A stretch of 64,000 nucleotides of DNA from Glycomyces artemisiae (lineage in GTDB: Bacteria > Actinomycetota > Actinomycetes > Mycobacteriales > Micromonosporaceae). Position 1 is the first letter of the stretch; every line of letters begins with the position of its first letter. The notes below the pieces were generated by a model, which worked only from the letters and a program-made list of their open reading frames with translations, ran no database searches and had not been told where the DNA came from. Of this stretch, positions 1,568 to 57,154 are shown piece after piece. Both the position numbers and the translations under genes were made by a program. Location of the stretch: assembly GCF_003002955.1 (NCBI RefSeq), contig NZ_PVTJ01000008.1, positions 1 through 64,000 on the forward strand, read 5' to 3'.

Positions 1568-1586
1568 AGCCTGCGCCGCAGGCTCT
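1566..1586. repeat. Perfect 21-bp palindrome
   Basis: AGAGCCTGCG (1566-1575) and CGCAGGCTCT (1577-1586) are perfect complements around a single C. It could be a dimeric repressor operator or a short hairpin; it lacks a T tract on either side. Confidence 0.6.
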
Positions 1587-1804
1587 TGGGATCAAGCGGA
1601 AGGTTGCGGAACGGCTCGCTCGTGAAGGTGAGTTCCGACTCCGATCCGGAAGATCGGCGGGCAGTCCTGGGACAGTTAGGGAACTGCTCGACTTCCTTGA
1701 TGGGGTCGAGCCGGAGGGTCGGGTTCTGGGGGAGATGGACGGGCGCTGACCGGAAATGGCAGTCGGTCCTGCTACCACGGTGCTATCACAGAGCCGGTGA
1801 TTGA

Positions 1805-1834
1805 CTCAGGGGCGAACCGGAGTTGGCCCCTGAG
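1805..1834 (-). terminator. Stem-loop downstream of the tRNA-Glu fragment
   Basis: CTCAGGGGC (1805-1813) pairs with GCCCCTGAG (1826-1834) across a 12-nt loop. It lies 15 nt past the 3' end of the minus-strand tRNA fragment, where a tRNA terminator would be. There is no strong T tract. Confidence 0.5.
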
Positions 1835-1849
1835 CTGTGTATCTATATG

Positions 1850-1892
1850 TACTCCCGAGCGGATTCGAACCGCCGTTTCCGCCTTGAGAGGG
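1850..1892 (-). pseudogene. 3' fragment of tRNA-Glu (CUC anticodon), likely attachment-site remnant
   Basis: Read on the minus strand, the stretch gives the anticodon loop CTCTCAA (anticodon CTC), the 3' anticodon strand GGCGG, a variable region, a T arm GGCGG-TTCGAAT-CCGCT and a 3' acceptor strand CGGGAGT with discriminator A. The 5' half (acceptor, D arm, 5' anticodon strand) is absent; the bases before the loop do not pair with GGCGG. Homology starting at the anticodon loop and running to the 3' end is the classic attachment core of tyrosine-recombinase elements. It is not a functional tRNA. Confidence 0.75.
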
Positions 1893-1925
1893 AATGAACG
1901 GGCTCGGGTGCTGTCGCGTTCTGAT

Positions 1926-30511: not shown

Positions 30512-31711
30512 GTGACCGCTTCCGTCCGCACCCGCAGGAACGCCCTGTCCTCGCTCTTCTTCCTGCCGGGCATCACCATCGCCTCGTGGGTCACCCGCAC
30601 TCCGGACGTGCGCGACCTCGTCGGTGCCTCTACTGCGCAGATGGGCCTCATCCTCTTCGGCCTCTCGATCGGCTCGATGACCGGCATCCTCAGCTCCGGG
30701 TCCTTCGTGTCCCGCTGGGGCACGCGACCGGTGATGATCGCCGGGACCCTCGCCATGGCCGCCGGGGCCGGGGTCATCGGCACCGGCGCGCAGCTCGGCT
30801 CCGGGGTCGCCGTCGCCGTCGGCCTGGGCCTCTTCGGCTGCGGCATGGGCGGATCGGAGGTGGCCTTCAACATCGAGGGCGCCGAGGTCGAACGCCTCCT
30901 CGGCCGCTCCGCGATGCCGCTCATGCACGGCTTCTTCAGCCTCGGCACCGTCGTCGGCGCCACCGCGGGCATGGTCCTCACCGCCGTCGCGTTCCCCGTC
31001 GTCGCGCACCTGTGGATCGCCGCCGCGCTCGTCGTCGCCGGGCTCGCGGTCGCGATCCGCCCCGTCCCCTCGGGCGTCGGCCGCGTCCTCGCCGCCACCG
31101 CCGAGCGCGCGCCGCGCCCGGCCGTGTGGAAGGACGTGCGGCTGCTGCTCATCGGCGGCATCATCCTCGCCCTCGCCATGGCCGAGGGCACCGCGAACGA
31201 CTGGCTCCCGCTGGTCATGGTCGACGGCCACGGCTTCGACGCCGCCCTCGGCTCGGCGGTCTTCGCGGTCTTCGCCGCCGCCATGACGGTCGGCCGGTTC
31301 ATCGGCGGGCGCTTCGTCGACCGGTACGGGCGCGTCGCGGTCCTCGCCGCCAGCGCCGTCGTCAGCGCCGCCGGGATGGCCCTGGTCGTGTTCGTGGACA
31401 ACCAGATCGTCGCCGCGGCCGCCGCGATCCTGTGGGGCCTGGGCGCCTCGCTCGGGTTCCCCGTCGCGATCTCCGCGGCCGGCGACTCCGGCAAGCACAC
31501 GGCCGCCCGCGTCGGCCTGGCCGCGACCGTCGGGTACGTGGCGTTCCTCGTCGGCCCGCCCGTGCTGGGCTTCCTCGGCGAGCACTACGGGCTGCGCTCG
31601 GCCCTCATCGCCGTGCTCGTCCTGGTCCTGGCCGCCGCGTTCATCACCCCGGCCGCCCGCAAGGCCGCGCCCGCGGAGCGGGAGACGGCCTCCTCGCTCA
31701 GCCGATCGTGA
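30512..31711 (+). CDS. MFS transporter
   Basis: 399 aa, about 12 TMs, of the FucP/YbjJ-like branch (NALSSLFFLPGITIASWVTRTPDVRD; RFIGGRFVDRYGR between halves). GTG 30512 follows GAGAAGG. Likely an exporter or sugar-type symporter; substrate unknown. The divergent TetR gene and its operator indicate ligand-induced expression. The stop overlaps the convergent molybdopterin gene by 14 bp. Confidence 0.88.
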   Translation: MTASVRTRRNALSSLFFLPGITIASWVTRTPDVRDLVGASTAQMGLILFGLSIGSMTGILSSGSFVSRWGTRPVMIAGTLAMAAGAGVIGTGAQLGSGVAVAVGLGLFGCGMGGSEVAFNIEGAEVERLLGRSAMPLMHGFFSLGTVVGATAGMVLTAVAFPVVAHLWIAAALVVAGLAVAIRPVPSGVGRVLAATAERAPRPAVWKDVRLLLIGGIILALAMAEGTANDWLPLVMVDGHGFDAALGSAVFAVFAAAMTVGRFIGGRFVDRYGRVAVLAASAVVSAAGMALVVFVDNQIVAAAAAILWGLGASLGFPVAISAAGDSGKHTAARVGLAATVGYVAFLVGPPVLGFLGEHYGLRSALIAVLVLVLAAAFITPAARKAAPAERETASSLSRS

Positions 31712-33200
31712 CGTCGACGGTGTGGAGGCCGGTGGCGCCGTCGGGGATGACGCCCTGCACGGTGCTGGTCTGGACCTCGCCCTCGCCGTCGGTGGCCCTG
31801 ACGGTGAGCGTGTGGTCGCCTTCGGGCGCGTCCCATTCGTAGCGCCACTGGCGCCAGGTGTCGCCGGTGGCGACGTCGGACAGCTCGCACGGCAGCCATT
31901 CGCCGCCGTCGATCTTCAGTTCGACGGCGCTGATGCCGCGGTGCTGCGCCCACGCGACCCCGGCGACGGCCACGGTGCCCGTCCCCGCCTTGCTCTTGGG
32001 CGTGTCGATGCGCGACTGGGTCTTGATCGGGCGCGGCTCGGACCAGCCGCGGGTGATCCAGTACGCGTCGTAGCTGTCGAATGTGGTGAGTTCGAGCTCG
32101 GTGAGCCACTTGGTGGCCGAGACGTACCCGTACAGGCCGGGGATGACCAGGCGTGCGGGCCAGCCGTGGTCGAGGGGGAGCGGCTGGCCGTTCATGCCGA
32201 CGGCGATCATCGCGTCGCGGCCGTCGAAGACGAGCTGCGTCGGCGATCCGGCGGTCCACCCGTCGGTGGACCGGGACACGAGCTGGTCGGCGGCGGGGTC
32301 GGGCCCGGCCTCGGCGAGGAGGTCGGCGAGGGACACGCCGAGCCAGCGGGCGTTGCCGACGAGGTCGCCGCCCACTTGGTTCGAGACGCACGCGAGCGTG
32401 ACGTCCCGTTCGATGAGCTCGCGGCCGAGGAGGTCGTCGAACGTGAACGTGAGCTCCTTGTCGACCATGCCGTGGACGCGCAGCGTCCAGGTGTCGACGT
32501 CGACCTGCGGGACGGTGATCGCGGTGTCGATGCGGTAGAAGTCGCCGTTGGGGACCCGGTACGGCGCGAGGCCGTCCACTTCGAAGTCGGCGACCGGCCC
32601 CGGTTCGACGGCGGGCACGTCGGCTTCGGGGAGCTTCACGGCGTCGCGCTGCGCCTCGACCCCGGCGGGCCCGGACCGCCCGGCCCACCACGAGGCCGCG
32701 AACCCGGCCGCGGCCACGCCGCCGAGCACCATGAGGAACCCGCGCCGCCCGGACTCCTCGGCCTGGGACCTGCTGCCCCACAACTGGAGGCCGAGAATCG
32801 TCACGGCCCCGGCGAGCAGCGACGGCACGACCGCTTCGACCCCGAGGCCGGGCCGCGTGAACGCGGCCGCGGCGCCGACGAGCGCGAGCACGGCGACCGC
32901 GATCCGCGCGGGCCACGGGCGCGTGCGCCACAGGACCCCGACGCCCGCGCCGACGACGGCGATGCCGACGAGCAGCCCGGCGATGAGCAGCGGCTTGTCG
33001 AGGGTGCCGACCAGCTCGATGAACCAGTGCGACACTTCGAGGGGGACCACGGCGACCACCGCGTCCGACAGGGCCGACAGGGGCGCCGACCGCGGCTCGT
33101 AGAGCGCGGCGGCGAGGTGCCCGATTGCGAGGCCCGCGACGGTGGCGAGCAGTCCGGCGGCGGCCCAGGAGCGCGGCGGTGCGTGATGCGTGGTGTTCAC
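31698..33200 (-). CDS. Membrane-anchored molybdopterin-dependent oxidoreductase (sulfite oxidase family)
   Basis: 500 aa. About five TM helices in residues 13-172, then an external Moco domain (~200-400) with the Mo-ligand Cys271 in LACVSN, and a C-terminal Mo-co dimerisation immunoglobulin-like domain (~405-500). This is the sulfite-oxidase/YedY superfamily; YedY (MsrP) relatives reduce sulfoxides, others oxidise sulfite. GTG 33200 with GGAGGG. A 17-bp box shared with two other units of this locus lies 45 nt upstream, tying it to the methylthioxylose-type genes. Substrate unknown; a thioether or sulfoxide is attractive but inferred. Confidence 0.88.
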   Translation of the reverse strand: MNTTHHAPPRSWAAAGLLATVAGLAIGHLAAALYEPRSAPLSALSDAVVAVVPLEVSHWFIELVGTLDKPLLIAGLLVGIAVVGAGVGVLWRTRPWPARIAVAVLALVGAAAAFTRPGLGVEAVVPSLLAGAVTILGLQLWGSRSQAEESGRRGFLMVLGGVAAAGFAASWWAGRSGPAGVEAQRDAVKLPEADVPAVEPGPVADFEVDGLAPYRVPNGDFYRIDTAITVPQVDVDTWTLRVHGMVDKELTFTFDDLLGRELIERDVTLACVSNQVGGDLVGNARWLGVSLADLLAEAGPDPAADQLVSRSTDGWTAGSPTQLVFDGRDAMIAVGMNGQPLPLDHGWPARLVIPGLYGYVSATKWLTELELTTFDSYDAYWITRGWSEPRPIKTQSRIDTPKSKAGTGTVAVAGVAWAQHRGISAVELKIDGGEWLPCELSDVATGDTWRQWRYEWDAPEGDHTLTVRATDGEGEVQTSTVQGVIPDGATGLHTVDVTIG

Positions 33201-33245: not shown

Positions 33246-33262
33246 CTTACGTTCCGCTAAAC
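33246..33262 (-). promoter_or_regulatory. Response-regulator box 1 (upstream of the molybdopterin gene)
   Basis: Plus strand CTTACG-TTCCG-CTAAAC. It ends 45 nt before GTG 33200 and overlaps the stop of the PLP gene. It matches boxes 2 and 3 in sequence and in distance to the start codon. Confidence 0.65.
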
Positions 33263-34402
33263 AAGGGCCGCGGGCGACTGCGCGAGCGCCTGCGCGAAGT
33301 CCTCCACGAGGTCCTCGGCGGCCTCGATCCCCGCGGAGAAGCGCACGACCTCGCCCGACATGCCGTGCGCCGCGCCGTCGAGGCGGAGCCGGGTCACGAG
33401 CGACTCGACGCCGCCGAGGCTCGGCGCCGCGTACGGCAGCCGCAGCGCCTTGACGATCGCCTCGGCGGCGGGCGCGCCGCCGACCGGGCGGAACGTGACG
33501 ACCGACCCGAATCCGTCGAACAGCGCCGCCGCGCGCCGGTGGTCGGGGTGCTGCGGCAGGCCCGGGTAGCGGACCGCGGCGACCGCGGCATGAGCGGCGA
33601 GGAGCTCGGCGACGGCCTGGGCGTTCTCGTTCTGGCGCTGCACGCGCAGCGCGAGCGTCTTGAGACCGCGCGCGAGCAGGAACGCGGCGTGCGGGTCGAG
33701 GCTCGCGCCGTAGGAGCCGAGCACGGCGGCGACGCGCGCGATCCGCTCGCGCGAGCCGGTGACCGCGCCCGCGGTGAGGTCGGAGTGGCCGTTGAGCGCC
33801 TTGGTCGCCGAGTGGCACACCAGGTCGAAGCCGACCGCGTGCGGCCGGAACACGACCGGCGTGGCGAGCGTGTTGTCGATGAGGGACGTCAGGCCGTGCT
33901 CGCGCGCGAACCTGGCGGCCCCGGCGAGGTCGCCGACCGCGGTGAGCGGGTTGGTGATCGACTCGGTGAGGAGCGCCTTCGTGGACGGGCGCAGGGCCCG
34001 GCGCCACGCGTCCGGGTCGCCGGGGTCGACCAGGTCGAACGACCAGCCGAGGCGCGCGGCGTGCTCGGTGAGGAACTGGAGCGTGCCGCCGTAGAAGTCG
34101 CCCGCGGCGATGAGGTGGTCGCCCGTGGCGAGGACGCTGTGGAGCGCGGTCGTGATGGCGCCCATGCCCGAGGCGGTCGCGACGGCAGCCTCCGCGCCTT
34201 CGAGGGCGGCGAGCCTGCGGTGCAGGTGCCGCTGGGTCGGGTTGGTGCCGAGCCTGGAATAGGGCGCGTCGCCGACGCCGCCGCCCGGGTCGGTCTCGAA
34301 GACCGTGCCCTGGAAGACCGGGAAGACCACCGAGCCGCCCGCGGCGGGCCGCGGCTCGCCGCCGTGGACGGCGAGGGTCGCGAACCTTCGTGTGTCGCTC
34401 AT
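33257..34402 (-). CDS. Cys/Met-metabolism PLP-dependent enzyme (cystathionine gamma-synthase/lyase type)
   Basis: 381 aa fold-type I PLP enzyme. PYSRLGTNPTQ, SGMGAI at the cofactor phosphate, and the Schiff-base Lys201 in CHSATKALNGHSD fit the MetB/MetC/MGL family. It could make or break C-S bonds of cystathionine, homocysteine or methionine; the exact reaction cannot be read from sequence. ATG 34402. A TAGCCT -10 box stands 7 nt before the start (leaderless) and response-regulator box 2 lies 46 nt upstream, so it is its own transcription unit within the locus. Confidence 0.88.
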   Translation of the reverse strand: MSDTRRFATLAVHGGEPRPAAGGSVVFPVFQGTVFETDPGGGVGDAPYSRLGTNPTQRHLHRRLAALEGAEAAVATASGMGAITTALHSVLATGDHLIAAGDFYGGTLQFLTEHAARLGWSFDLVDPGDPDAWRRALRPSTKALLTESITNPLTAVGDLAGAARFAREHGLTSLIDNTLATPVVFRPHAVGFDLVCHSATKALNGHSDLTAGAVTGSRERIARVAAVLGSYGASLDPHAAFLLARGLKTLALRVQRQNENAQAVAELLAAHAAVAAVRYPGLPQHPDHRRAAALFDGFGSVVTFRPVGGAPAAEAIVKALRLPYAAPSLGGVESLVTRLRLDGAAHGMSGEVVRFSAGIEAAEDLVEDFAQALAQSPAALV

Positions 34403-34448: not shown

Positions 34449-34465
34449 CTTACGTTTCGCTTACG
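34449..34465 (-). promoter_or_regulatory. Response-regulator box 2 (upstream of the PLP gene)
   Basis: Plus strand CTTACG-TTTCG-CTTACG, a perfect 6-bp direct repeat with 11-bp period, the best of the three boxes. It lies 46 nt upstream of ATG 34402 and overlaps the MTA phosphorylase stop. Confidence 0.7.
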
Positions 34466-35229
34466 TCCGCCAGCGCCGGGATCGCGGCGTCGAGCAGTTC
34501 CTTCACCTTGTGCAGGTTCGCCTCGAACACCGCGAACACGGCGTCCTGGCTGACCGGCTCGACGCCGGGGTCCTCGTCCAGTCCGGCGTCGTAGTCGGTG
34601 ACCAGGGCGATCCCCACGAACGGGATGCCCGCCTCCATCGCGAGCGGCGCTTCGGGGCACTGGGTCATGTTGACGACGTGCCAGCCGGACTCGCGGTGCC
34701 AGCGCGACTCGGCGCGGCTGGAGAACCGCGGGCCGTTGACGACCACGACGGTGCCGCCGTCGTGCGCGGTCACCCCGACTTCGGCGGCGGCGTCGAGGAC
34801 GACGCGGCGCAGGCGCGGGTCGTACGGCTCGGCGAACGGGATGTGCACGGGCCCGTCCGTGAACTCGTCATGGAAGGTGGACTCGCGCCCCCAGGTGCGG
34901 TCCACGATCTGGTCGCAGACGACGAAGTCGCCGGGGCGGATCTCGGGCCGCAGCGACCCGGCCGCGAACGGCGAGACGAGGGCCCGCACGCCGAGCTGCC
35001 GCATGGCGTCCACATTGGCGCGGTAGTTGACCTTGTGGGGCGGGAGGCGGTGCCCGGCGCCGTGGCGGGGGAGGAACGCGACGCGGACTCCGGCTGTCTC
35101 CGCGATGGCGACGGGGGCCGAGGGCGGGCCCCAGTCGGTCGCGATGTCCCACGTCTCGGCCTGCGCCGCAAGGGTGTAGAAGCCGGATCCGCCGAAGACG
35201 CCGATATCGGCGCGGGGACGGTCGTTCAC
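34450..35229 (-). CDS. mtnP: S-methyl-5'-thioadenosine phosphorylase
   Basis: 259 aa PNP/UDP family enzyme that cleaves MTA to adenine and 5-methylthioribose-1-phosphate. GGSGFYTL at the phosphate site, FLPRHGAGHRLPPH, NYRANVDA, VVVNGPRFSSRAE and NMTQCPEA are diagnostic of MTAP. GTG 35229 follows GAGGAG and overlaps the upstream stop (GTGA). The product methylthioribose-1-phosphate is the proposed source of methylthioxylose in mycobacteria (Rv0535 is the counterpart), which fits the sugar-transferase neighbours better than plain methionine salvage, whose other genes are absent here. Confidence 0.92.
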   Translation of the reverse strand: MNDRPRADIGVFGGSGFYTLAAQAETWDIATDWGPPSAPVAIAETAGVRVAFLPRHGAGHRLPPHKVNYRANVDAMRQLGVRALVSPFAAGSLRPEIRPGDFVVCDQIVDRTWGRESTFHDEFTDGPVHIPFAEPYDPRLRRVVLDAAAEVGVTAHDGGTVVVVNGPRFSSRAESRWHRESGWHVVNMTQCPEAPLAMEAGIPFVGIALVTDYDAGLDEDPGVEPVSQDAVFAVFEANLHKVKELLDAAIPALADVSET

Positions 35230-36533
35230 TGGTGACTCCTCTTCAGGTTCGCGGCGGCTCTGGCCCGTGCCAGTTGCGCGCGCATGTCCTTGACGGCGCG
35301 GAAGGTTCCGCCGACGGTGCCGGTGACCTTGCTGCGGCCGGTGCGGGGCCGGTAGGGGACCGGCAGTTCGGCGATCCGCCACCCGTCGAGCCCGGCCCGC
35401 AGGACCATTTCGAGGGGCCAGCCGGAGCGGCGGTCGGCGGTGCCGAGCGCGAGGAGGTCTTCTCTGCGGGCTGCGCGCATCGGCCCGATGTCGGTGACGG
35501 CGGCGCCGCAGGTGCGCCGGACCTGCCGCGCGAGGTACCGGTTGGCGAGGCGCCCGTGCAGGGGCATCGCGCCTCTGCTGGCTTTCCTTGCGCCCAATGC
35601 CAGGTCGGCGTCGCCGTTGAGGACGGGCCCGCACACCGCGGGCAGGTCCTTCGGGTCCAGGGACGCGTCGCAGTCCATGAACGCCACGACCGGCGCGGTC
35701 GCGGCGGCGAGCCCCGCGAAGCACGCGGCGCCGAAGCCGCGGCGCGGCTCGGCCACCACCCGCGCGCCGAGCTTCGCGGCGACCTCCGCGGACCCGTCCG
35801 TCGAGCCGTTGTCGACCACGATCGGCCGGTACCCCTCGGGCATCCGCTCCAGCACCCACGGGATCGCGTCGCGTTCGTCCAGGACCGGCAGGACCACATC
35901 GACTGCGTTGGCGCCCAGCAGGTCCCGGATGCGCCCGGCCGTGCGCGTCCGCGGCGCGAGCACGGCGACCGCGCGGGCGTCCCCGGCGTCGTCGAGGTCG
36001 CGCAGCACCGGCAGGTCGGCGACCTCCAGGCCGAGCGCCTCCAACTGCTTGCGCTGGAGCCGGCCCGTGTCGCCGGTGCTCATCGGCACGTCCGCGAACG
36101 CCTCAGGGTGCGGCCGGGCCAGGCCCAGCGCCCACCACCCGCCGTCCTCCGCGAGGCCCAGCGCCGCGTCCGCGCCCTCGGCGACCACCGCGAGCGCCGC
36201 GTCCAGGAGCTCCGGCGTCACCTGCGGGGTGTCCATGCCGATCTGGAGCCCCGGCCCCTCCACGTGCGCCCACGCCGCCGCCAGCCGCTCGTTGAACGTG
36301 CCGTCGACCTGCGCGAACACCTCGAACCCCGGGGGCAGCCACGGGCCGGGCTCGCCGTCGAGCGCGAGCAGCAGCCGGTCGGCCCCGCACCCCGCGGCGG
36401 CCTCCAGCGTGTCCGCGAGCGCGGCCTCCGCCACCTCCGCGGCCCCCTCGGGGGTCAACGGCGGCGTGAGCCGGGTCTTCGACCGGCCCGGGACCGGGGC
36501 TTTCGCCACGACGAGGAGATGGGTCCGCTGCAT
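35226..36533 (-). CDS. DUF2064 - glycosyltransferase family 2 fusion
   Basis: 435 aa. Residues 1-~205 are a DUF2064 nucleotidyltransferase-like domain (VVAKAPVPGRSKTRL, IGMDTPQV, LGLAEDGGWWALGL). Residues ~208-435 are a GT2 dolichyl-phosphate-sugar-synthase-like domain (VVLPVLDERDAIPWVL, VDNGSTDGS, DCDASLDP, then PYRPRTGRSKVTGTVGG). In M. tuberculosis the equivalents Rv0540 and Rv0539 are separate. Probable role: activation of the sugar-1-phosphate and transfer to polyprenyl phosphate. TAGCAT stands 7 nt before ATG 36533, with box 3 46 nt upstream. Coupled to mtnP by a GTGA overlap. Confidence 0.88.
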   Translation of the reverse strand: MQRTHLLVVAKAPVPGRSKTRLTPPLTPEGAAEVAEAALADTLEAAAGCGADRLLLALDGEPGPWLPPGFEVFAQVDGTFNERLAAAWAHVEGPGLQIGMDTPQVTPELLDAALAVVAEGADAALGLAEDGGWWALGLARPHPEAFADVPMSTGDTGRLQRKQLEALGLEVADLPVLRDLDDAGDARAVAVLAPRTRTAGRIRDLLGANAVDVVLPVLDERDAIPWVLERMPEGYRPIVVDNGSTDGSAEVAAKLGARVVAEPRRGFGAACFAGLAAATAPVVAFMDCDASLDPKDLPAVCGPVLNGDADLALGARKASRGAMPLHGRLANRYLARQVRRTCGAAVTDIGPMRAARREDLLALGTADRRSGWPLEMVLRAGLDGWRIAELPVPYRPRTGRSKVTGTVGGTFRAVKDMRAQLARARAAANLKRSHQ

Positions 36534-36579
36534 GGGGCCGATGCTAGTGGCGCGCGGGCCCTCCCAGGCCCGCTCGATC

Positions 36580-36596
36580 CTTACGGTTCGCGAAAG
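36580..36596. promoter_or_regulatory. Response-regulator box 3 (between the divergent GT and response-regulator genes)
   Basis: Plus strand CTTACG-GTTCG-CGAAAG. It is 46 nt upstream of ATG 36533 on the minus strand and 50 nt upstream of ATG 36647 on the plus strand, so it may serve both directions. Confidence 0.6.
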
Positions 36597-36646
36597 TCTC
36601 GGCAGGTCGCATGACGGACCGCCGCGTGATCGGGCATCGTTGCACC

Positions 36647-37336
36647 ATGACCTCCCGAGTGGACCCGCGCGTCCTCGTCGTCGACGACGACCCCGCCCTC
36701 GCGGAGGTCGTCGCCCGCTACCTGCGCCGCGACGGCTTCGACGTCGACTACGCGCCCGACGGCGCCACCGGCCTCGAACGGGCCCTCGCCACCCTCCCCG
36801 ACCTGGTCGTCCTTGACCTGATGATGCCGGGCATGGACGGCTTCGAGGTGTGCAAGCGCCTGCGCGAGGCCACCGCGATCCCCGTGGTCATGCTGACCGC
36901 CCGCGGCGAGGAGACCGACCGCATCACCGGCCTCGACCTCGGCGCCGACGACTACGTGACCAAGCCGTTCTCCCCGGGCGAGCTCGCCGCCCGCGTCCGC
37001 GCCGTCCTGCGCCGCGCCGCGCCCCAGGCCCCGGCGCCCGCGGTCCTCACCGGCGGCGGCGTCGCCGTCGACACCGTCGCCCACCGCGCCGTCCGCGGCG
37101 GCGCCGAACTCGACCTCACGGCGAAGGAGTACGACCTGCTCGTGTGCTTCCTGACCAACCCGGGGCGGGCCTTCCGCCGCGAGGAACTGCTCGAAACGGT
37201 GTGGGGCTGGAGCATCGGCGACACCTCCACCGTCACCGTCCACGTGCGGCGCCTGCGCGAGAAGATCGAGGACGACGCCTCCGCGCCCCGCCACCTCACC
37301 ACCGTCCGCGGCGTCGGCTACCGGTGGGAGCCCTGA
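36647..37336 (+). CDS. OmpR/PhoB-family response regulator
   Basis: 229 aa: receiver domain (1-~120) with VVDDD acidic pocket, phospho-acceptor Asp57 and Lys106, then a winged-helix DNA-binding domain (~135-229, DLTAKEYDLL, VHVRRLREKIE, VRGVGYRW). ATG 36647 is preferred over an in-frame ATG at 36611, since the family begins there and a CATCGT -10-like box lies 6 nt upstream. First gene of a four-gene rightward operon; likely regulator of the boxes in this locus. Confidence 0.93.
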   Translation: MTSRVDPRVLVVDDDPALAEVVARYLRRDGFDVDYAPDGATGLERALATLPDLVVLDLMMPGMDGFEVCKRLREATAIPVVMLTARGEETDRITGLDLGADDYVTKPFSPGELAARVRAVLRRAAPQAPAPAVLTGGGVAVDTVAHRAVRGGAELDLTAKEYDLLVCFLTNPGRAFRREELLETVWGWSIGDTSTVTVHVRRLREKIEDDASAPRHLTTVRGVGYRWEP

Positions 37337-38571
37337 TGCGGCGCTTGACGAACCGGCGCGCGGGCTCGCTGCTGATCCTCGCGGTGGCGCTCGCTGCCGC
37401 GACCGCCCTCGCGGTCGCCTTCGACTTCCCGCCGCGCGACATCGCCGTCCTCGTCGCCACCGCCGCGGTCGCCTCCGCGGTCGCCGGGGCCGTCGGCGGC
37501 GTCGTCCTCCGCGCGCTCCGCGGCCGGGGCGCCCGCGTCCAGACCATGACCGTCGCGCTCTCCTCGGTCCTCGTCGCCGCCACCGGCGTCGTCACCGCCG
37601 CGCTCGCGATGTTCATCTCCTACCACGACCTCGTGCTGCTGTTCGTGGTCCTCATCGTCGCCTCCGGCGTCGCGTTCGGCGCCGCCTGGCAGCTCGGCGA
37701 CGACATCGGTGCGGGCGCCGAGCAGGTCGGGGCGTACGCGCGCACCATGGTCGACGGCGACGGGCACGCCGCCGCCGGCCTCGCCCCCGCGGTCACCGGC
37801 CCCGGCGAACTCGCCGCGCTCGCAGGAGAACTCGCCGACGTCTCCCGGCGCCTCGAAGAGTCCCAGCGGCGCGAGCGCGCCCTCGAATCCTCACGGCGCG
37901 AACTCATCGCCTGGGTCTCCCACGACCTGCGCGCCCCGCTCGCGACCATCCGCGCGATGGCCGAGGCCCTCGACGACGGCGTGGTCGACGACGACGCCGC
38001 CGTCAAGCGCTACCACGCCCAGATCCGCACCGACGCCGAACGGCTCTCCGCGCTCGTGGACGACCTCTTCGAGCTCTCCCGCATCAACAGCGGCTCCCTG
38101 CGGCTCGGCCGCGAGCAGGTCGACCTGCGCGACGCCGTCGCCGACACCCTCGCCGGGGCCAGCGCCGCCGCCGACCTGAAAGGCGTCCGCGTCGTCGAAC
38201 GCCTCGCCGCCCTCCCGGCCGCCGAGGTCTCGGCCCGCGAATGCTGCCGCGCCCTCGACAACCTCTTCGACAACGCCATCCGCCACACCCCCGCCGGAGG
38301 GACGATCCTCATCGAGGCCGCCGCCGCCCCCGGCGCCGCCGTCCTGTCCATCCAGGACCAGTGCGGCGGCATCCCCGACGCCGACCTGCCCCGCGTCTTC
38401 GACATCGCGTTCCGCGGCGACGAGGCCCGCCGCCGCGACGAGCGCGGCGGCGGACTCGGCCTCGCGATCAGCCGCGGCCTCATCGAGGCCCACGCGGGCA
38501 CCGTCACCGTCGCCAACACCGCGGGCGGCTGCCGCTTCACGATCAGCCTCCCCGCCGGGGCGCGCCGGTGA
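37336..38571 (+). CDS. Sensor histidine kinase
   Basis: 411 aa. Three to four TM helices in residues 8-118 with almost no extracellular loop, so the signal is probably in the membrane or from a partner. A HAMP-like region, then HisKA with His196 (VSHDLRAPLA) and HATPase with DNLFDNAIRHTP, GIPDADLPRVFD and GGGLGLAI. The start overlaps the response-regulator stop by one base, and the stop overlaps the next gene, so the operon is tightly coupled. Confidence 0.93.
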   Translation: MRRLTNRRAGSLLILAVALAAATALAVAFDFPPRDIAVLVATAAVASAVAGAVGGVVLRALRGRGARVQTMTVALSSVLVAATGVVTAALAMFISYHDLVLLFVVLIVASGVAFGAAWQLGDDIGAGAEQVGAYARTMVDGDGHAAAGLAPAVTGPGELAALAGELADVSRRLEESQRRERALESSRRELIAWVSHDLRAPLATIRAMAEALDDGVVDDDAAVKRYHAQIRTDAERLSALVDDLFELSRINSGSLRLGREQVDLRDAVADTLAGASAAADLKGVRVVERLAALPAAEVSARECCRALDNLFDNAIRHTPAGGTILIEAAAAPGAAVLSIQDQCGGIPDADLPRVFDIAFRGDEARRRDERGGGLGLAISRGLIEAHAGTVTVANTAGGCRFTISLPAGARR

Positions 38572-39845
38572 CGGCCAAGGCCCGGACCGCCGCCGTCCTC
38601 ACCGGCTGGGCCCTGCTCCTCGCCCTCGCCTGGGTCCTCGGCCAAGTGAAACTCAACGTCACCGAAGGCCGCCACCAGCTCGGCGCGATGCCCCTGTTCG
38701 GCAGCTGGGAGCCCCACTTCGACGCCACGCTCCTTGCCCCGGTCGCCGTGGGCGCCCTGCTCATCGCGTTCCTCCCGGCTGCCGCGGCCCGCTGGCGCTG
38801 GCGGTGGACCGCGCTTGCGACCGCTCTCGCCGCGGTCGCCTTCAGCCTCTCCCTGACCGTCGCCCACTCCCACCCCCGCACCTGGACCGACCTCGACCAC
38901 CATTACGCGAGCAACGCGCACCTGGTGGACGACGCGGGCGGCCCCGGCGCGTTCCTCGCGCACTACACGCAGCTCCAGCTCGACGGCGTCTACCCGGTCC
39001 ACCTCCAGTCCCACCCGCCCGGCCTTGTCCTCTTCTTCTGGGGCGCAGAGAAACTCGGCCTCTCCGGCATCCTGTTCCAGAACACCGTGATCCAGCTCGG
39101 CGTCGCCGCCGCGGTCCTCGCCGCACTGGCGATCGGCCGCGACGTCGCAGGCGAGCGCCTCGCCCGCCGCGCCGCCCCGTTCCTCGTCATCGCCCCGGCC
39201 GCGTACTGGCACAACACCGCCGACCTCATCTTCGCGGGCGTCACGCTCGCGGCCGTCGCCTGCCTGATCCTCGCCACGAACCGCACCGGCCCCCGCGCCG
39301 CCGCCCTGACCGCGGCCGGAGGGCTCCTTGCGGGCGCCGCCCTCATGCTGTCGTTCTCCGCTGCGCTGCTCGCTCTCCCGGTCCTGGTCGTCGCCGTATG
39401 GCGCCGCCGCTGGGGCGTGCTCCTCGGCGGCGGCGCGCTCGCGGCCGCCGTGGTCCTCGCGCCGCTGCTGTGGGGGTACTGGTGGCTCGAAGGGCTCCAG
39501 ACGACGCGGGTCCGCTACTACGCGGGCGTGGCCGCGATCCGCGGGTACTGGTACTTCCTGCTCGCGAACCTCGCGGTCTTCGCGCTGGCACTGGGCCCGG
39601 CAATCGCGGTGGCTCTGTCGCGGCTGCGCGACCGCCGCATGTGGATTGTCGTCGGCTCGTGCCTCGCGGCCGTCGCGGTCGCGGACCTGTCGGGCATGTC
39701 CTCGGCCGAGACCGAGCGGATCTGGCAGCCGTTCATGCCCCTCGTCCTCCTCGCCGGGTGCGCCCTCCCGCGCCCCCGCGCGTGGCTGGCGGTCCAGCTC
39801 GGGGTCGCCGTCGTCCTCGCCGCCGCACTGCGGGTGCAGTGGTGA
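38568..39845 (+). CDS. Multi-pass membrane glycosyltransferase (GT-C-like; Rv0541c-type)
   Basis: 425 aa with about 11 TM helices. After TM3 comes a long external segment with DLDHHYASN, PGAFLAHYTQ and LQSHPPGLVLFFW, as in polyprenyl-phosphate-dependent GT-C enzymes. The setting (epimerase, DUF2064-GT2, MTAP) matches M. tuberculosis Rv0541c, the reported methylthioxylose transferase. GTG 38568 overlaps the kinase stop (GTGA). Identification rests on context and topology more than on clear motifs. Confidence 0.75.
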   Translation: MTAKARTAAVLTGWALLLALAWVLGQVKLNVTEGRHQLGAMPLFGSWEPHFDATLLAPVAVGALLIAFLPAAAARWRWRWTALATALAAVAFSLSLTVAHSHPRTWTDLDHHYASNAHLVDDAGGPGAFLAHYTQLQLDGVYPVHLQSHPPGLVLFFWGAEKLGLSGILFQNTVIQLGVAAAVLAALAIGRDVAGERLARRAAPFLVIAPAAYWHNTADLIFAGVTLAAVACLILATNRTGPRAAALTAAGGLLAGAALMLSFSAALLALPVLVVAVWRRRWGVLLGGGALAAAVVLAPLLWGYWWLEGLQTTRVRYYAGVAAIRGYWYFLLANLAVFALALGPAIAVALSRLRDRRMWIVVGSCLAAVAVADLSGMSSAETERIWQPFMPLVLLAGCALPRPRAWLAVQLGVAVVLAAALRVQW

Positions 39846-39864
39846 ACCACCGAAAGGCTCATCA

Positions 39865-40896
39865 ATGCGCGTACTGGTCACCGGCGGCGCCGGGTTCATC
39901 GGCGGAGCGGTCTGCCGCCACCTCGCCGCCCGCGGCGACGACGTGGTCGTCCTCGATTCCCTTGCGGCCCACAAGCACACCCCCGACTACCTGCCCGACT
40001 CGGCGGAGCTGATCGTCGGCGACCTCGCCGACGAGGACGCCGTCCGGCGCGCCGTCGAGGGCGTCGACGCGGTCTGCCACCAGGCCGCCCGCGTCGGCCT
40101 CGGCGTCGACTTCGACGACGTCTCCGCCTACGTCGCCGACAACGACGGCGGCACCGCGAACCTTCTGCGGGCCCTGTGGCGGCGCTCCTTCGCCGGCCGC
40201 CTCGTCGTCGCCTCCTCGATGGTCGTCTACGGCGAGGGCCGCTACCGCTGCCCCGCGCACGGCGACGTCCGCGCCGCGCCCCGTACTGCCGCCGACCTCG
40301 ACGCGGGCCGCTTCGACCCCCGCTGCCCCGCCTGCGCCGCCGCCCTCGCCTGGGCCCCGGTCACCGAGGACGCCCCGCTCGACCCCCGGAACGTCTACGC
40401 CGCCACCAAGGTCCACACCGAGCACCTGTCCACCCTGTACGGCCGCGAATCGGGCGCCACCGTCTGCGCCCTGCGCTACCACAACGTCTACGGCCCCCAC
40501 ATGCCCCGCGACACCCCCTACGCTGGGGTCGCCAGCATCTTCCGCAGCGCCCTCGAATCAGGCCGGGCCCCGCGCGTCTTCGAAGACGGCGCCCAGACCC
40601 GCGACTTCGTCCACGTCGACGACGTCGCCCGCGCCAACCTCGCCGCCCTCGACTCCACTTGGACCGGCGCCTGCAACATCGCCTCCGGCGAACCCCACAC
40701 CATCGCCGACATGGCCGCCGCCCTCACCGCGGGCTTCCCTGACGCCCCGGCCCCTGTCGTGACCGGCGACTACCGCCTCGGCGACGTCCGCCACATCGTC
40801 GCCTCACCCGACCTCGCCGCCGACCGCCTCGGCTTCCGCGCCGCCATCGGCTTCGCGGAGGGCATGGCCGCCTTCGCCCACGCCCCGCTCCGCTAA
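39865..40896 (+). CDS. NAD-dependent epimerase/dehydratase with zinc-ribbon-like insert
   Basis: 343 aa extended SDR acting on a nucleotide sugar. NAD motif TGGAGFIGG at the N-terminus, catalytic Ser/Tyr/Lys with SSMVVYGEG and YAATK. An insert at ~123-158 has a CPAHG and CPAC pair, as in the actinobacterial GalE3-like group. Counterpart of Rv0536 by context; expected to invert a centre on the activated methylthiopentose (ribo to xylo), which is inferred. ATG 39865. Last gene of the operon; meets the convergent membrane-protein gene with a 4-bp overlap. Confidence 0.88.
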   Translation: MRVLVTGGAGFIGGAVCRHLAARGDDVVVLDSLAAHKHTPDYLPDSAELIVGDLADEDAVRRAVEGVDAVCHQAARVGLGVDFDDVSAYVADNDGGTANLLRALWRRSFAGRLVVASSMVVYGEGRYRCPAHGDVRAAPRTAADLDAGRFDPRCPACAAALAWAPVTEDAPLDPRNVYAATKVHTEHLSTLYGRESGATVCALRYHNVYGPHMPRDTPYAGVASIFRSALESGRAPRVFEDGAQTRDFVHVDDVARANLAALDSTWTGACNIASGEPHTIADMAAALTAGFPDAPAPVVTGDYRLGDVRHIVASPDLAADRLGFRAAIGFAEGMAAFAHAPLR

Positions 40897-41955: not shown

Positions 41956-42819
41956 TCAAGGGGTGTCGGTGGGGCGATTCGACCGACTTGAGCGTACTTC
42001 GAGCGCCCCGTCGCCCGCGCCCGCCCGCAGTCGTAACCCCTTGCGGCCGAACGGTGTCGCCACGGTGATGATCGAACCCGAGGAGTCCGGGTCGAAGGCG
42101 GCCCCGGTGAAGGTCCCGAAGCGCGCCTCGACCGCGAGGCCCGCCGCCTCCAGGAGCCGGTCGAGGTGGTCCGGGGCGGTGAACCGCAGGCCGCAGCTCG
42201 CTCGCAACGGCTCGTCCCAATATGAGGCGCTGAAGTACGCGTCGAGCCGGACCACGCCCTCGCCGTCGGGCTCGCCCGCCTCCTGTACGACGCTCATCGG
42301 CTCCCCGAGCGGATCGGTGAACCGGTACGGCTCGGCGCTCGTCCAGGTCCGCCACGCCTTCGCCGCCGGGTTGCGGGTGTCGAAGACGAACCTGCCGCCG
42401 TCGGTGAGGGCGCGGCGGACCGCGGTCAGCGATGCAACGGTGTCAGCGTCGTCCAGCAGGCACTGGAACGCGTTGCCGCTCATGATCGCCAGGTCGAACT
42501 CCGCGTCCCATGCGGCCGCCGAAGCGGGCGCGAGCACCCATTCCGCGGCGTCGGACTCCTGCGCCTGCCCGAGCATTGCCGGGTCGGGGTCGATCCCGAC
42601 CCGCCGCCCGGCATGGCCCCCGGCGCGGGCGCGGCGCAGGATCGTCCCCGTGCCGCACCCGACGTCGAGCACGCGTTCGGCGGCCATGACCAGGTCGAGG
42701 TAGAACTGGTCGCTCTGGCCCCACTCGTTGAGGTGGTCGTAGAGCAGCGCGTCGAGGGTCTCCCCGTCGAGCGCGGGCGGGTCGTAGGCGATCGTCACCG
42801 GGCCAGTCTGCTCGGGCAC
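41956..42819 (-). CDS. Class I SAM-dependent methyltransferase
   Basis: 287 aa. SAM motif I VLDVGCGTGTI, acidic motif GIDPDPAML, and DLAIMSGNAFQCLLDD at motif IV. The C-terminal ~30 residues (after ITVATPFGRKG) are Arg/Ser-rich and look dispensable. GTG 42819. Substrate unknown; small molecule is likely from the Methyltransf_25-like fold. Upstream gene ends 28 nt away. Confidence 0.82.
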   Translation of the reverse strand: MPEQTGPVTIAYDPPALDGETLDALLYDHLNEWGQSDQFYLDLVMAAERVLDVGCGTGTILRRARAGGHAGRRVGIDPDPAMLGQAQESDAAEWVLAPASAAAWDAEFDLAIMSGNAFQCLLDDADTVASLTAVRRALTDGGRFVFDTRNPAAKAWRTWTSAEPYRFTDPLGEPMSVVQEAGEPDGEGVVRLDAYFSASYWDEPLRASCGLRFTAPDHLDRLLEAAGLAVEARFGTFTGAAFDPDSSGSIITVATPFGRKGLRLRAGAGDGALEVRSSRSNRPTDTP

Positions 42820-42846
42820 CGGCCCGGCGGCAATCGCATTAGGGCG

Positions 42847-44601
42847 CTAAGGCGGCCAGGGGAAGCCGAGCGCTTCGGCATACTCCTTCGATCCGCCGGA
42901 GAGGCGGGCCGTCGACTTCGGATCCGTGGCTTTCAGGTCCGCGATGATGCGGTCCACGACCCCTGTCACGGCAGCGTCGTCGACCTCGGGAACGTACGGC
43001 ACTGCGCACGACGCGGAGAACTGCACCCAAGGGCCGTCTTCGGACGGCCGCTTCGGGTAGTAGAACGAGTACTGCATCTCGGATCGATCCGGTGACCATG
43101 AGCCGGTCCACGCCAGCTCGCACTCCCAGCGCGACATCAGCTCCGGCTCGGCCCCGATCCGCTCCCGCAGCAGCCGCGCGGCTCGTTTTGCGGGCCACTC
43201 CCAGTCGAAATCGGCTGCGGCCCTGGCGACCTCGGCGTCGTACTGGTCGGCGTCGAAGGCGAACCGGGCCGTCAGCGGATCCTTCAGGCCGGTGTCGCGG
43301 ACCTCCCACTCCACCAGGCCGTCATGGCGGCTGATCACCGCCCGGAACGCTCCGCAGCACTCCTCGACGCAGCCCGTGTCGCCGATCTTCACGTCGCGCG
43401 GCTCCGCGAGCGCCGTAAGACCGAGCCCGTCGTGCAGCACCGTTTCCGGCCTGTCCGAGTGGCCGCGTTGGAAGTGCGCCTCCACGAGCGGCACGCCGTC
43501 GAGCAGCAGGTGCGTCCGCGGCTGGGCGGCAGCGCTCGGCCGCGGCACACTCACCCGCACCGCCAACCCCCGGGGCAGCGGCAGGTCACTGTGCCCCGCC
43601 CGGTTGAGCTGCGTACGCAACCAGACCAGGTCAGGATCGTCCGGTGTGGCGGCCAGTGCGGCATCGACCGAAGCAGACGCCTCCGGCGACACCAGCAGCG
43701 CCTGGATTCCCGCAGCGGTCATTTCCCGCTCCCCGGGCGCGAACCCGAGCAGGGCACAGCGGCCGTACCGCACCTCGTCCCACAGTTGCGCCGCGAGCGC
43801 GAGCGTCTCCGGCTCGACCCCGAGCGCACCCGGCCGGGCCGCGTCGCGCAGGATGCGGGCGAACCGCTGGTCGCCTTGGAACCCTTCGGGTCTGCGGTCA
43901 AGCGCGCTGAACATCTGCACCAGGTCCGCGGACTGCTTCACTGGCAGAGCATAGAGCAGCTCGCTGAATTCCTGCTCCGGCAAATCCCGGATCGCCCGAA
44001 CCGTGTGCCAGCGGCGGTACACCGGAGTCCGCTCGGCCGCCCAGGCCAGATGCGGCCCGGACCGCCCGATACGCTCCAGCGCCTTGATCGCGGTCCCTTC
44101 GATCCTTCGGCCCAGCGGAATGAAGATCCGGATCCGTTCGCCGTCCCCGTCGCGAGGTGCGAGCGACAGCAGGTTCACACCGATGCAGATCTCAGCGATG
44201 CTCGTGCCGGTGTCGAGCAGGTGCTCGGCAATGGCCCGGATCGTGCCGGGTGCCATCGTGAACTCCGCGGCCTCCATATCGGAGGCGAGGGTGGCCGGGC
44301 CGACGCTGTTCCTGACATGCTTGCCGAAGTCCCGCAGGCCGTCCGGTGTCGCATCGGTGGTGCGGATCGACTCGATGAGTTCTGCTCGCGCTGCTGCGTA
44401 CTCGGCTTCGCGCTGCCGCGCCCGCTCTTTCAGCGTTCCGGTCGACGGAGGTCGCGACCTGTACTTAATAGCGATCGAGGCGCGGATCTCGCGGAGTGCC
44501 GCATCAGGGAGCGGTCCGTCGGAGTGGTGCTCGAGCAGCGCCCGGAGGCGGCTCTGGATGGGCTCGGGGTCGAGCGCATTGCGCTCGCCGGTCGCCGTCA
44601 T
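42847..44601 (-). CDS. Hypothetical protein, 584 aa
   Basis: No family recognised. N-terminal part (~1-90) is charged and may form a coiled coil (TLKERARQREAEYAAARAEL). The middle is helical and repeat-like; the C-terminal half has a Cys cluster CVEECCG and a final segment with QYSFYYPKRPSEDGPW. No signal peptide or TM. GC is slightly lower than neighbours. The ATG at 44601 overlaps the hydrolase stop (ATGA), so the two are translated together and probably act together. Confidence 0.7.
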   Translation of the reverse strand: MTATGERNALDPEPIQSRLRALLEHHSDGPLPDAALREIRASIAIKYRSRPPSTGTLKERARQREAEYAAARAELIESIRTTDATPDGLRDFGKHVRNSVGPATLASDMEAAEFTMAPGTIRAIAEHLLDTGTSIAEICIGVNLLSLAPRDGDGERIRIFIPLGRRIEGTAIKALERIGRSGPHLAWAAERTPVYRRWHTVRAIRDLPEQEFSELLYALPVKQSADLVQMFSALDRRPEGFQGDQRFARILRDAARPGALGVEPETLALAAQLWDEVRYGRCALLGFAPGEREMTAAGIQALLVSPEASASVDAALAATPDDPDLVWLRTQLNRAGHSDLPLPRGLAVRVSVPRPSAAAQPRTHLLLDGVPLVEAHFQRGHSDRPETVLHDGLGLTALAEPRDVKIGDTGCVEECCGAFRAVISRHDGLVEWEVRDTGLKDPLTARFAFDADQYDAEVARAAADFDWEWPAKRAARLLRERIGAEPELMSRWECELAWTGSWSPDRSEMQYSFYYPKRPSEDGPWVQFSASCAVPYVPEVDDAAVTGVVDRIIADLKATDPKSTARLSGGSKEYAEALGFPWPP

Positions 44602-54910: not shown

Positions 54911-57154
54911 ATGGCATCGGCCCCCGCCGCCGCGAACCGCATCGAACTCGAAATCGGCGGCATGACCTGCGCCTCCTGCGCCATGCGGATCGAGAAGAAG
55001 CTCAACAAGCTCGACGGCGTCACCGCCAGCGTCAACTACGCCACCGAGAAGGCCCAGATCGAGGCCCCCGCGGGCACCGACCCGGCCGAACTCATCGCCG
55101 TGGTCGAGAAGACCGGCTACACCGCCGCCGTCCCCAAGGCCCCCGAGCCGGAGGCCGACGAGACGGACCGCCCCGACCCCGAGCTGACCTCGCTGCGAGG
55201 CCGCCTCATCGCCTCGATCGTCCTGTCGGTCCCGGTCATCGCCATGTCGATGGCCCCGGCCCTCCAGTTCGAGTACTGGCAGTGGCTCTCGCTCGCGCTG
55301 GCGTGGCCGGTGATCCTGTGGGGCGCCTGGCCGTTCCACAAGGCCGCCTGGACGAACCTGCGCCACGGCGCGGCCACCATGGACACGCTCGTGTCCGTGG
55401 GCACCCTCGCCGCGTTCGCGTGGTCGATCTATGCACTCTTCTGGGGGACGGCCGGGACGCCGGGCATGAAGCACCCGTTCGAGTTCACCGTGGAGCCCAG
55501 CGACGGCGCCTCGAACCTGTACCTCGAAGTGGCCGCGGGCGTCACGATGTTCATCCTCGCCGGGCGGTACTTCGAGAAGCGCTCGAAGCGCAAGGCCGGC
55601 GCGGCCCTGCGGGCGCTGCTCGAAATGGGCGCCAAGGACGTCGCGGTGCTCCGCGGCGGCGCCGAGACGCGCGTGCCGATCGCGCAGCTCGCGGTCGGCG
55701 ACGAGTTCGTGGTCCGGCCGGGGGAGAAGATCGCCGCCGACGGCGTGATCGTCTCCGGCACCTCCGCGATCGACGCGTCGATGCTCACCGGCGAGTCGGT
55801 GCCCGTGGAGGTCGCCGAGGGCGACCCGGTCACCGGCGCCACCGTCAACGCCGGAGGCCGCCTCGTCGTCAAGGCCACCCGCGTAGGCTCGGACACGCAG
55901 CTCGCGCAGATGGCGCGCCTGGTCGAAGAGGCCCAGTCCGGGAAGGCCGAGGTCCAGCGCCTCGCCGACCGGGTCTCGGGGATCTTCGTGCCCGTGGTCA
56001 TCGCGATCGCGGTCGGCACGCTCGGGTTCTGGCTCGGCGCCGGGTTCCCCGCGGCCTCGGCGTTCACCGCCGCCGTCGCGGTCCTCATCATCGCGTGCCC
56101 GTGCGCCCTGGGCCTGGCGACGCCGACCGCGCTGCTCGTCGGCACCGGCCGCGGCGCCCAGATGGGCGTGCTCATCAAGGGCCCGGAGATCCTGGAGTCC
56201 ACGCGCAAGGTCGACACGATCGTCCTCGACAAGACCGGCACCGTCACCACCGGGAAGATGACCCTCGTGGACGCGGTCGCCGCCGAGGGCACTGACCGCG
56301 CCGAGCTGCTGCGGCTCGCCGGGGCGATCGAGCACGCCTCGGAGCACCCGGTGGCGCAGGCGATCGCGAAGGGCGCGGCCGCCGAGGTCGAGCTCCCGGC
56401 GGTCGAGGACTTCCAGAACGTCGAGGGCAAAGGCGTCCAGGGCGTCGTCGACGGGCACTACGTCGTCGTCGGCCGCGACAGCCTCCTCGCGGACTGGAAG
56501 CTGGAACTGGCCCCGGCGCTCGCCGAGGCGAAGGCCGAGGCCGAGCGCGGCGGCAAGACCGCCGTGGCGGTCGCCTGGGACGGCGAGGCCCGCGGGGTCC
56601 TGGTCGTCGCCGACACCGTGAAGCCGACCAGCGTCGAAGCGGTCGCCCAGTTCAAGGCCCTCGGGCTGACCCCGGTCCTGCTGACGGGCGACAACAAGGC
56701 CGTCGCCGAGCGCATCGGCGCCGAGGTCGGGATCGACGAGGTCATCGCCGAGGTGCTTCCCGCGGACAAGGTCGCGGCCGTCGCGAAGCTCCAGGCCGAG
56801 GGCAAGGTGGTGGCGATGGTCGGCGACGGCGTCAACGACGCCGCGGCGCTCGCCAAGGCCGACCTGGGCCTGGCGATGGGCACCGGCACCGACGTCGCGA
56901 TCGAGGCCGCCGACCTGACGCTGGTCCGCGGCGACCTGCGCGGCGCGGCGGACGCCATCCGCCTGTCGCGGCGCACGCTCGGCACCATCAAGGGCAACCT
57001 GTTCTGGGCGTTCGCCTACAACGTCGCGGCGATCCCGCTCGCGGCCCTCGGCCTGCTCAACCCGATGCTCGCCGGTGCGGCCATGGCCTTCTCCAGCGTG
57101 TTCGTGGTCGGCAACAGCCTGCGCCTGCGCTCCTTCAAGAGCCGCGCGCTCTAA
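54911..57154 (+). CDS. copA: Copper-translocating P-type ATPase CopA
   Basis: 747 aa P1B-1 ATPase exporting Cu(I). One N-terminal HMA domain (MTCASC, Cys20 and Cys23), the actuator TGES, the membrane Cys-Pro-Cys at 396-398, the phosphorylated Asp440 in DKTGT, HP in SEHPVAQAI, and [10 protein letters not shown] in the ATP domain. ATG 54911 after GAAGGAAGGACG. Final gene of the CsoR-controlled operon; a strong hairpin follows. Confidence 0.95.

What the first reader, a model, noticed from the sequence alone, without database searches (positions are those of the whole stretch)
34450..40896. Methylthioxylose-type glycan locus outside mycobacteria
Four genes here correspond one for one to the M. 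tuberculosis Rv0535-Rv0541c region that has been linked to the 5-methylthioxylose cap of lipoarabinomannan: MTA phosphorylase (Rv0535), GalE3-like epimerase (Rv0536), GT2 plus DUF2064 (Rv0539, Rv0540; fused here) and a multi-pass glycosyltransferase (Rv0541c). The other methionine-salvage genes are absent nearby, so MTA phosphorylase probably feeds sugar synthesis. This organism may therefore decorate an envelope glycan with a thio-sugar, and it adds a two-component system and sulfur-redox genes not in the mycobacterial set.
Basis: partly seen in the sequence, partly recalled or inferred. Interest (0 to 1): 0.85.

Follow-up and report, generated by a model that had tools for sequence, protein, structure and literature searches.

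The report
Methylthio-sugar gene cluster in Glycomyces
A soil actinobacterium carries a complete, apparently transferred version of the gene set linked in mycobacteria to an unusual sulfur sugar on the cell surface, although it seems to lack the surface polymer that carries that sugar in tuberculosis bacteria.

Summary
Window 34450-40896 encodes MTA phosphorylase (MTAP), a DUF2064-GT2 fusion, a response regulator, a histidine kinase, a GT-C membrane glycosyltransferase and a GalE-like SDR, in a Glycomyces-like genome. MTAP, fusion, GT-C and SDR are kept in 19 of 19 other Glycomyces loci. The same five functions sit together in 44 of 56 named mycobacterial loci with full flanks and in 29 of 56 actinomycete genomes that I chose. 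This genome lacks MtnA, ARD and MtnK, so MTR-1-phosphate has no canonical salvage route. Two Jiangella-type genomes without MTAP carry MTR kinase, which gives the same intermediate.

Best reading: MTA to MTR-1-P (MTAP), NDP-MTR (DUF2064, CofC-like fold), C3 epimerisation (SDR), polyprenyl-P-methylthiopentose (GT2), transfer outside (GT-C).

MptB and EmbABC are absent, so the acceptor is probably not LAM. The cassette groups with Jiangellales, not with the organism's own family, which suggests horizontal transfer. Against the reading: at least four clusters lie in genomes with neither MTAP nor convincing MtnK. The sugar itself is inferred.

The parts
34450..35229 (-). MTA phosphorylase (MTAP, Rv0535-type); predicted first step, MTA + Pi to adenine + 5-methylthioribose-1-phosphate
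   Evidence: PF01048 and NCBIfam MTAP models; best PDB relatives are MTAPs; D212 and D214 in at least 95% of 30 homologues (their role in adenine binding is recalled)
35226..36533 (-). DUF2064-GT2 fusion. Residues 1-205: CofC-like nucleotidyltransferase fold. Residues 208-430: polyprenyl-phosphate sugar synthase-like GT2 (MtxS/Rv0539-type)
36534..36658 (.). divergent region between the two transcription units, likely promoter region (inference)
   Evidence: gene coordinates; extent depends on which RR start is used
36611..37336 (+). OmpR/PhoB-type response regulator (an alternative start lies at 36659)
   Evidence: PF00072 + PF00486; kept in 18 of 19 Glycomyces loci
37336..38571 (+). histidine kinase
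   Evidence: PF00512 + PF02518; kept in 18 of 19 Glycomyces loci
38568..39845 (+). GT-C membrane glycosyltransferase (MtxT/Rv0541c-type)
39865..40896 (+). GalE-like extended SDR (Rv0536-type) with a C-x2-H...C-x2-C insertion; predicted C3 epimerase of NDP-5-methylthioribose
   Evidence: PF01370; insertion cysteines and histidine kept in 39-41 of 43 homologues incl. mycobacterial; SSM and Y-x3-K present
33257..34402 (-). accessory: cystathionine gamma-synthase/lyase-type PLP enzyme
   Evidence: PF01053; beside the cluster in 9 of 19 other Glycomyces, in none of the 59 other class loci
31698..33200 (-). accessory: membrane-anchored sulfite-dehydrogenase-like molybdopterin enzyme
   Evidence: PF00174; SoxC/SorA relatives, below their cut-offs; 9 of 19 other Glycomyces

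Best explanation
A cassette that turns methylthioadenosine (MTA), a by-product of SAM metabolism, into a 5-methylthio-pentose decoration of an extracytoplasmic glycan. Steps: (1) MTAP cleaves MTA to adenine and 5-methylthioribose-1-phosphate. (2) The DUF2064 domain adds a nucleotide, giving NDP-methylthioribose. (3) The SDR inverts C3, giving NDP-methylthioxylose. (4) The fused GT2 domain transfers it to polyprenyl phosphate. (5) The GT-C enzyme moves it onto a glycan outside the membrane. The two-component system controls expression. Shown here: the genes, their modelled folds, conserved motifs, conserved linkage, missing salvage genes and missing MptB/Emb. Inferred: every catalytic step in this organism, the order of steps 2 and 3, the nucleotide, the acceptor and the regulation. 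From literature: MtxS (Rv0539) forms MTX-P-C50 and MtxT (Rv0541c) transfers MTX (figure legend of PMC8780516, passage).
For: Block kept in Glycomyces: MTAP, fusion, GT-C, SDR 19 of 19; RR, HK 18 of 19; one open frame holds both DUF2064 and GT2 motifs in 19 of 19. All five functions linked in 44 of 56 named mycobacterial loci with full flanks, and in 29 of 56 fetched class genomes from 6 of 15 families; every one of the 29 with MTAP has the other four. No MtnA, ARD or MtnK match in this genome. Over 394 genomes, GT-C and MTAP co-occur: 114 both, 32 GT-C only, 77 MTAP only, 171 neither, p=5e-20, not corrected for descent; 77 genomes have both and no MtnA. Of 18 Jiangella-type (f22) genomes with the GT-C, 16 have MTAP and no MtnA; the other two have MtnA and no MTAP (counted by hand), and both carry MTR kinase. 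G384 has the four other core genes, neither MTAP nor MtnA, but MTR kinase over cut-off. DUF2064 fold is CofC/Rv2983-like. Of 120 listed relatives of the fusion, 41 have DUF2064 first and 76 GT2 first.
Against: Genomes G197, G250, G368 and G249 have GT-C (profile match), GT2, DUF2064 and SDR together but no MTAP and no MTR kinase over cut-off, so some clusters must use another source or make another sugar. Even in my sample MTAP is linked in only 29 of 56. GT-C and MtnA also co-occur slightly more than by chance over the class (48 both, 98 GT-C only, 51 MtnA only, 197 neither, p=0.008), so the cluster does not in general replace salvage. NCBIfam MTAP scores fall just short of their cut-offs. 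MTAP-type enzymes may also cleave 5'-deoxyadenosine. No chemistry is available for this organism, and the acceptor is unknown.
Confidence: 0.6

Rival explanations
1. The cassette makes a different 5-modified pentose, such as a 5-deoxypentose, from 5'-deoxyadenosine left by radical SAM enzymes, with the same enzymes.
For: PMC6302742 (passage) says the early fate of 5'-deoxyadenosine can be expected to parallel that of MTA, possibly with the same enzymes. The pathway logic fits any 5-substituted adenosine.
Against: In M. tuberculosis MtxS and MtxT are tied to methylthioxylose, and Rv0535 was identified as MTA phosphorylase (title in reference lists).
Confidence: 0.15
2. MTAP only clears MTA and salvages adenine. 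The glycosyltransferases and SDR make an ordinary sugar decoration, and MTAP is a co-regulated neighbour.
For: At least four clusters are in genomes without MTAP or convincing MtnK; in the same-family genomes G095 and G196 MTAP lies far from the cluster.
Against: In 29 of 29 fetched class genomes with linked MTAP, all four other core genes are present. This genome has no MtnA match, so MTR-1-P would be a dead end. Two Jiangella-type genomes replace MTAP by MTR kinase.
Confidence: 0.2
3. It is an arsenosugar pathway; DUF2064 proteins are named 'arsenosugar biosynthesis glycosyltransferase' in NCBIfam.
For: TIGR04282 matches the DUF2064 part at 115.1 bits.
Against: That score is under the cut-off of 134; no TIGR04167 radical SAM match over cut-off in the genome (best 28.7 bits against 300).
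Confidence: 0.02
4. A chance neighbourhood of unrelated genes.
For: Each family is common on its own (general knowledge).
Against: Linkage kept in 19 of 19 Glycomyces loci and across several families; in trees of four members the nearest rows are Jiangella-type, not the own family.
Confidence: 0.01

Closest known systems
Methylthioxylose (MTX) locus of Mycobacterium, Rv0535-Rv0541c, with MtxS (Rv0539) and MtxT (Rv0541c)
   Same: Same five families linked; in M. lacus (L063) in the order MTAP-SDR-..-GT2-DUF2064-GT-C
   Different: DUF2064 and GT2 fused; SDR next to GT-C; two-component system inside the block; GT-C only 30-35% identical; no MptB or EmbABC match, so no mycobacterial LAM acceptor expected
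Jiangella / Phytoactinopolyspora-type clusters (f22)
   Same: Nearest relatives in the trees (SDR up to 76%, GT-C up to 62%, MTAP 70%, HK 70% identity)
   Different: DUF2064 and GT2 not in one frame in 16 of 16 fetched loci; 12 of 16 also hold a methyltransferase and 11 of 16 a b561-molybdopterin protein
CofC / Rv2983-type guanylyltransferases
   Different: Substrate here predicted to be a pentose-1-phosphate; not tested
ArnC/ArnT aminoarabinose system
   Same: GT2 making a polyprenyl-phosphate pentose, then a GT-C enzyme that transfers it outside (folds; pathway recalled)
   Different: Different sugar and acceptor; no sequence match of the GT-C protein to any PDB chain up to E=1

Membership tests
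MTX locus (Rv0535-Rv0541c type) | GT-C protein homologous to the mycobacterial one over its length | tested here: met
   hhalign 100%, 389 columns, 32% identity; M. decipiens and other mycobacteria stand in for Rv0541c
MTX locus (Rv0535-Rv0541c type) | direct comparison with the Rv0535-Rv0541c sequences themselves | not tested
   M. tuberculosis not among the 80 loci or the 120 listed proteins
MTX locus (Rv0535-Rv0541c type) | MTAP, SDR, GT2, DUF2064 and GT-C linked | tested here: met
MTX locus (Rv0535-Rv0541c type) | SDR of the same subfamily | tested here: met
   shared C-x2-H...C-x2-C insertion, 39-41 of 43; window against mycobacteria 51-58% identity, n=57
MTX locus (Rv0535-Rv0541c type) | lipomannan/LAM acceptor made by the cell | tested here: not met
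   no MptB match, no EmbA/B/C-type match; each model matches 1 of 14 controls, C. glutamicum. Only these two families were sought
MTX locus (Rv0535-Rv0541c type) | makes and transfers methylthioxylose | not testable with these tools
   needs chemistry
GT-C glycosyltransferases | GT-C fold | tested here: met
MTA phosphorylase (TIGR01694 / PRK07823) | curated score cut-off | tested here: inconclusive
   263.3 against 274.85 and 302.3 against 306
TIGR04282 arsenosugar glycosyltransferase | curated score cut-off | tested here: not met
   115.1 against 134
canonical methionine salvage | MtnA and ARD present | tested here: not met
   0 matches in own genome; the models match in 9 and 5 of 14 control genomes

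The most novel reading that the evidence does not exclude
Many free-living actinobacteria, some without LAM genes, route MTA into a 5-methylthio-pentose on envelope glycans by a transferable cassette. DUF2064 is the missing nucleotidyltransferase for 5-modified pentose-1-phosphates, the SDR with the zinc-ribbon-like insertion is the ribo-to-xylo epimerase, and the linked membrane molybdoenzymes set the oxidation state of the sugar's sulfur (thioether or sulfoxide) under control of the two-component system.
Probability: 0.35. Interest if true: 0.78.

Novelty: new variant of a known kind. Interest (0 to 1): 0.62.

Why it matters
Methylthioxylose is called the hallmark of M. tuberculosis LAM (PMC8531672, abstract passage) and is a diagnostic target (PMC6258851, listing and start of abstract only). 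In the passages that I saw, only MtxS and MtxT are named for its synthesis. This locus proposes a full route from MTA with one enzyme for each missing step. It offers soil bacteria in which to test that route, and it predicts that related thio-sugars exist well beyond mycobacteria, on a glycan still to be found. If such an epitope is common in the environment, it also bears on how specific it is as a marker.

Tried and rejected
Arsenosugar reading: rejected, no TIGR04167 match over cut-off in the genome and TIGR04282 under cut-off. LAM as acceptor: judged unlikely, no MptB or EmbABC match. P0360 looked like a triple fusion SDR-GT2-DUF2064, but the end of its SDR part does not match the family, so a frameshift may have joined it; I give it no weight beyond showing the three genes in one row (it is counted among the GT2-first fusions). 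P0100 (GT-C joined to SDR) is likewise not used. The idea that the molybdoenzyme is a methionine-sulfoxide-reductase-like repair enzyme: the window's copy is nearer to sulfite dehydrogenases SoxC/SorA than to MsrP, all under cut-off, so it stays a speculation. I looked for hidden MTAPs in the MTAP-less genomes: their other phosphorylases are at most 32% identical to this MTAP in alignments over 100 residues; the translations printed by that call are partly on the wrong strand and were not used. A first ORF caller gave poor genes and was replaced by a codon-usage one. Literature: (open-access library only) listed no paper on MTX or this locus outside mycobacteria, and none with the word DUF2064. 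Of the 110 papers only 30 were listed, of the 32 only 20, and of the 3,713 only 12. The key paper (Angala 2017) is not held; I saw only citations of it in others.
Full report
WHAT IS THERE. The window lies on contig C8 of a 5.79 Mb genome rated 100% complete. The closest proteins to its GT-C gene are from Glycomyces (93% in Glycomyces sp. NPDC047369; an unnamed metagenome protein is 97%). Minus strand: a DUF2064-GT2 fusion (35226-36533), then MTAP (34450-35229, 4-bp overlap). Plus strand: response regulator, histidine kinase, GT-C membrane protein (38568-39845, 4-bp overlap with the kinase) and SDR (39865-40896). Two further minus-strand genes follow MTAP: a PLP enzyme of the Cys/Met class (33257-34402) and a membrane-anchored molybdopterin enzyme (31698-33200).

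BOUNDARIES. A genus search found the GT-C gene in 20 of 22 genomes including this one. I fetched all 19 others. MTAP, fusion, GT-C and SDR are present in 19 of 19 and RR and HK in 18 of 19. The PLP and molybdoenzyme genes are in 9 of 19; of the seven other flanking genes sought, five are in none and two in 1 of 19 each. So the unit is the six genes, and the sulfur-redox genes are accessory. One open frame holds both DUF2064 and GT2 motifs in 19 of 19 Glycomyces loci, but in 0 of 16 f22 loci and 0 of 43 other class loci.

HOW WIDE IT IS. A profile of the GT-C family (A1, 23 proteins) matched 146 of 394 genomes of the class. From these I fetched 59 usable loci of 56 genomes; the choice was mine, mainly strong matches plus examples from many families, so it is not a random sample. 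Of the 56, by similarity to the window's proteins: GT-C 54, GT2 51, DUF2064 50, SDR 42, RR 36, HK 36, MTAP 29, and by similarity to other loci's proteins a small SAM methyltransferase 38 and a cytochrome-b561/molybdopterin protein 33. The two without a counted GT-C (G196, G250) were fetched for a profile match. All five core functions are together in 29, from 6 of 15 families; four (without MTAP) in 38. Every genome with linked MTAP has the other four. In one search the best 80 of 399 matching stretches were returned, all mycobacterial. Of the 56 with both flanks complete, 44 hold all five, 11 RR and HK, and 12 the b561-molybdopterin protein.

A NATURAL TEST. Among 394 genomes, GT-C and MTAP go together: 114 both, 32 GT-C alone, 77 MTAP alone, 171 neither. 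The p-value of 5e-20 ignores common descent. GT-C and MtnA do not exclude each other over the class (48 both, 98 GT-C only, 51 MtnA only, 197 neither, p=0.008, more overlap than chance). In family f22 (Jiangella-type by matching contig lengths), 18 genomes have the GT-C; 16 have MTAP and no MtnA, and the two without MTAP (G124, G192) are the only two with MtnA (counted by hand). Both carry MTR kinase over its cut-off next to MtnA, so both can still make MTR-1-P. I tested only one MTAP-bearing f22 genome (G041) for MTR kinase; it has none. G384, with the four other core genes and no MTAP or MtnA, also has MTR kinase. Against this, G197, G250, G368 and G249 have the four-gene cluster (GT-C of G250 weak by direct comparison, clear by profile) but neither MTAP nor an MTR kinase over cut-off; G249 has MtnA. 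G223, G267 and G291 also have a GT-C match and neither enzyme, but I did not examine their neighbourhoods. These clusters must use another precursor or make another sugar.

MOBILITY. In trees of SDR, GT-C, HK and MTAP the window's nearest rows are Jiangella-type (SDR: 17-row set of 16 f22 + window, starred 100; GT-C likewise; HK 16-row set starred 100; for MTAP no starred set). Holding the window together with the other genus of its own family is rejected for GT-C (p=4e-128), MTAP (p=6e-47) and HK (p=7e-7); it was not tested for SDR. f22 without the window as one clade is rejected for GT-C (p=0.013) but not for MTAP (0.18) or HK (0.20) (quick trees, groups named after seeing the hits). The simplest reading is transfer of the whole cassette between these lineages, with the DUF2064-GT2 fusion arising on the Glycomyces side.

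ACCEPTOR. No MptB match and no EmbA/B/C-type match, each with C. glutamicum as the positive control. A mycobacterial-type lipomannan/LAM acceptor is therefore unlikely, and the decorated glycan is unknown.

SULFUR REDOX. M. tuberculosis LAM carries both methylthioxylose and its sulfoxide (PMC8531672, passages). A membrane molybdopterin protein lies near the GT-C in 33 of 56 class genomes, and a different one next to this cluster in Glycomyces. A role in setting the oxidation state of the sugar's sulfur is possible but speculative: the window's copy is closest to sulfite dehydrogenases.

VERDICT. Observation confirmed and extended; interpretation partly supported; a new variant of a known kind. 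JGI's automatic names already call some Glycomyces-like proteins 'methylthioxylose transferase', so family membership is not new. The LAM-less setting, the fused DUF2064-GT2, the precursor logic and the transfer are what this work adds.

Noticed in passing
L041 12.8-15.1 kb, L088 4.9-7.2 kb and similar loci: A small SAM methyltransferase (38 of 56 class genomes) and a cytochrome-b561/molybdopterin protein (33 of 56) recur beside the cluster; the methyltransferase has no relative among the called genes of this window; role unknown.
   Followed up: partly
G124 (L180) and G192 (L181): Salvage operon with MtnA, a nucleoside hydrolase and MtnK (families checked for L180), plus genes that by eye look like MtnC, MtnB and, in L180, an ABC transporter; among f22 genomes with the GT-C, MtnA is only in these two, which lack MTAP.
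   Followed up: partly
window 41956-44601: A methyltransferase gene and a 584-aa protein without Pfam match lie beyond the cluster; found in 1 and 0 of 19 other Glycomyces loci.
   Followed up: no
window 1-2000: G+C drops to 56% against 68-77% in the other 2-kb steps, with two small ORFs without Pfam match; possible foreign DNA.
   Followed up: no
L006 11237-14449 (contig C8 about 75.2-78.4 kb): Long open frame (1071 codons) with a nucleoside-phosphorylase domain near its end; function unknown.
   Followed up: no
window 54911-57154: Heavy-metal P-type ATPase with HMA domain.
   Followed up: no
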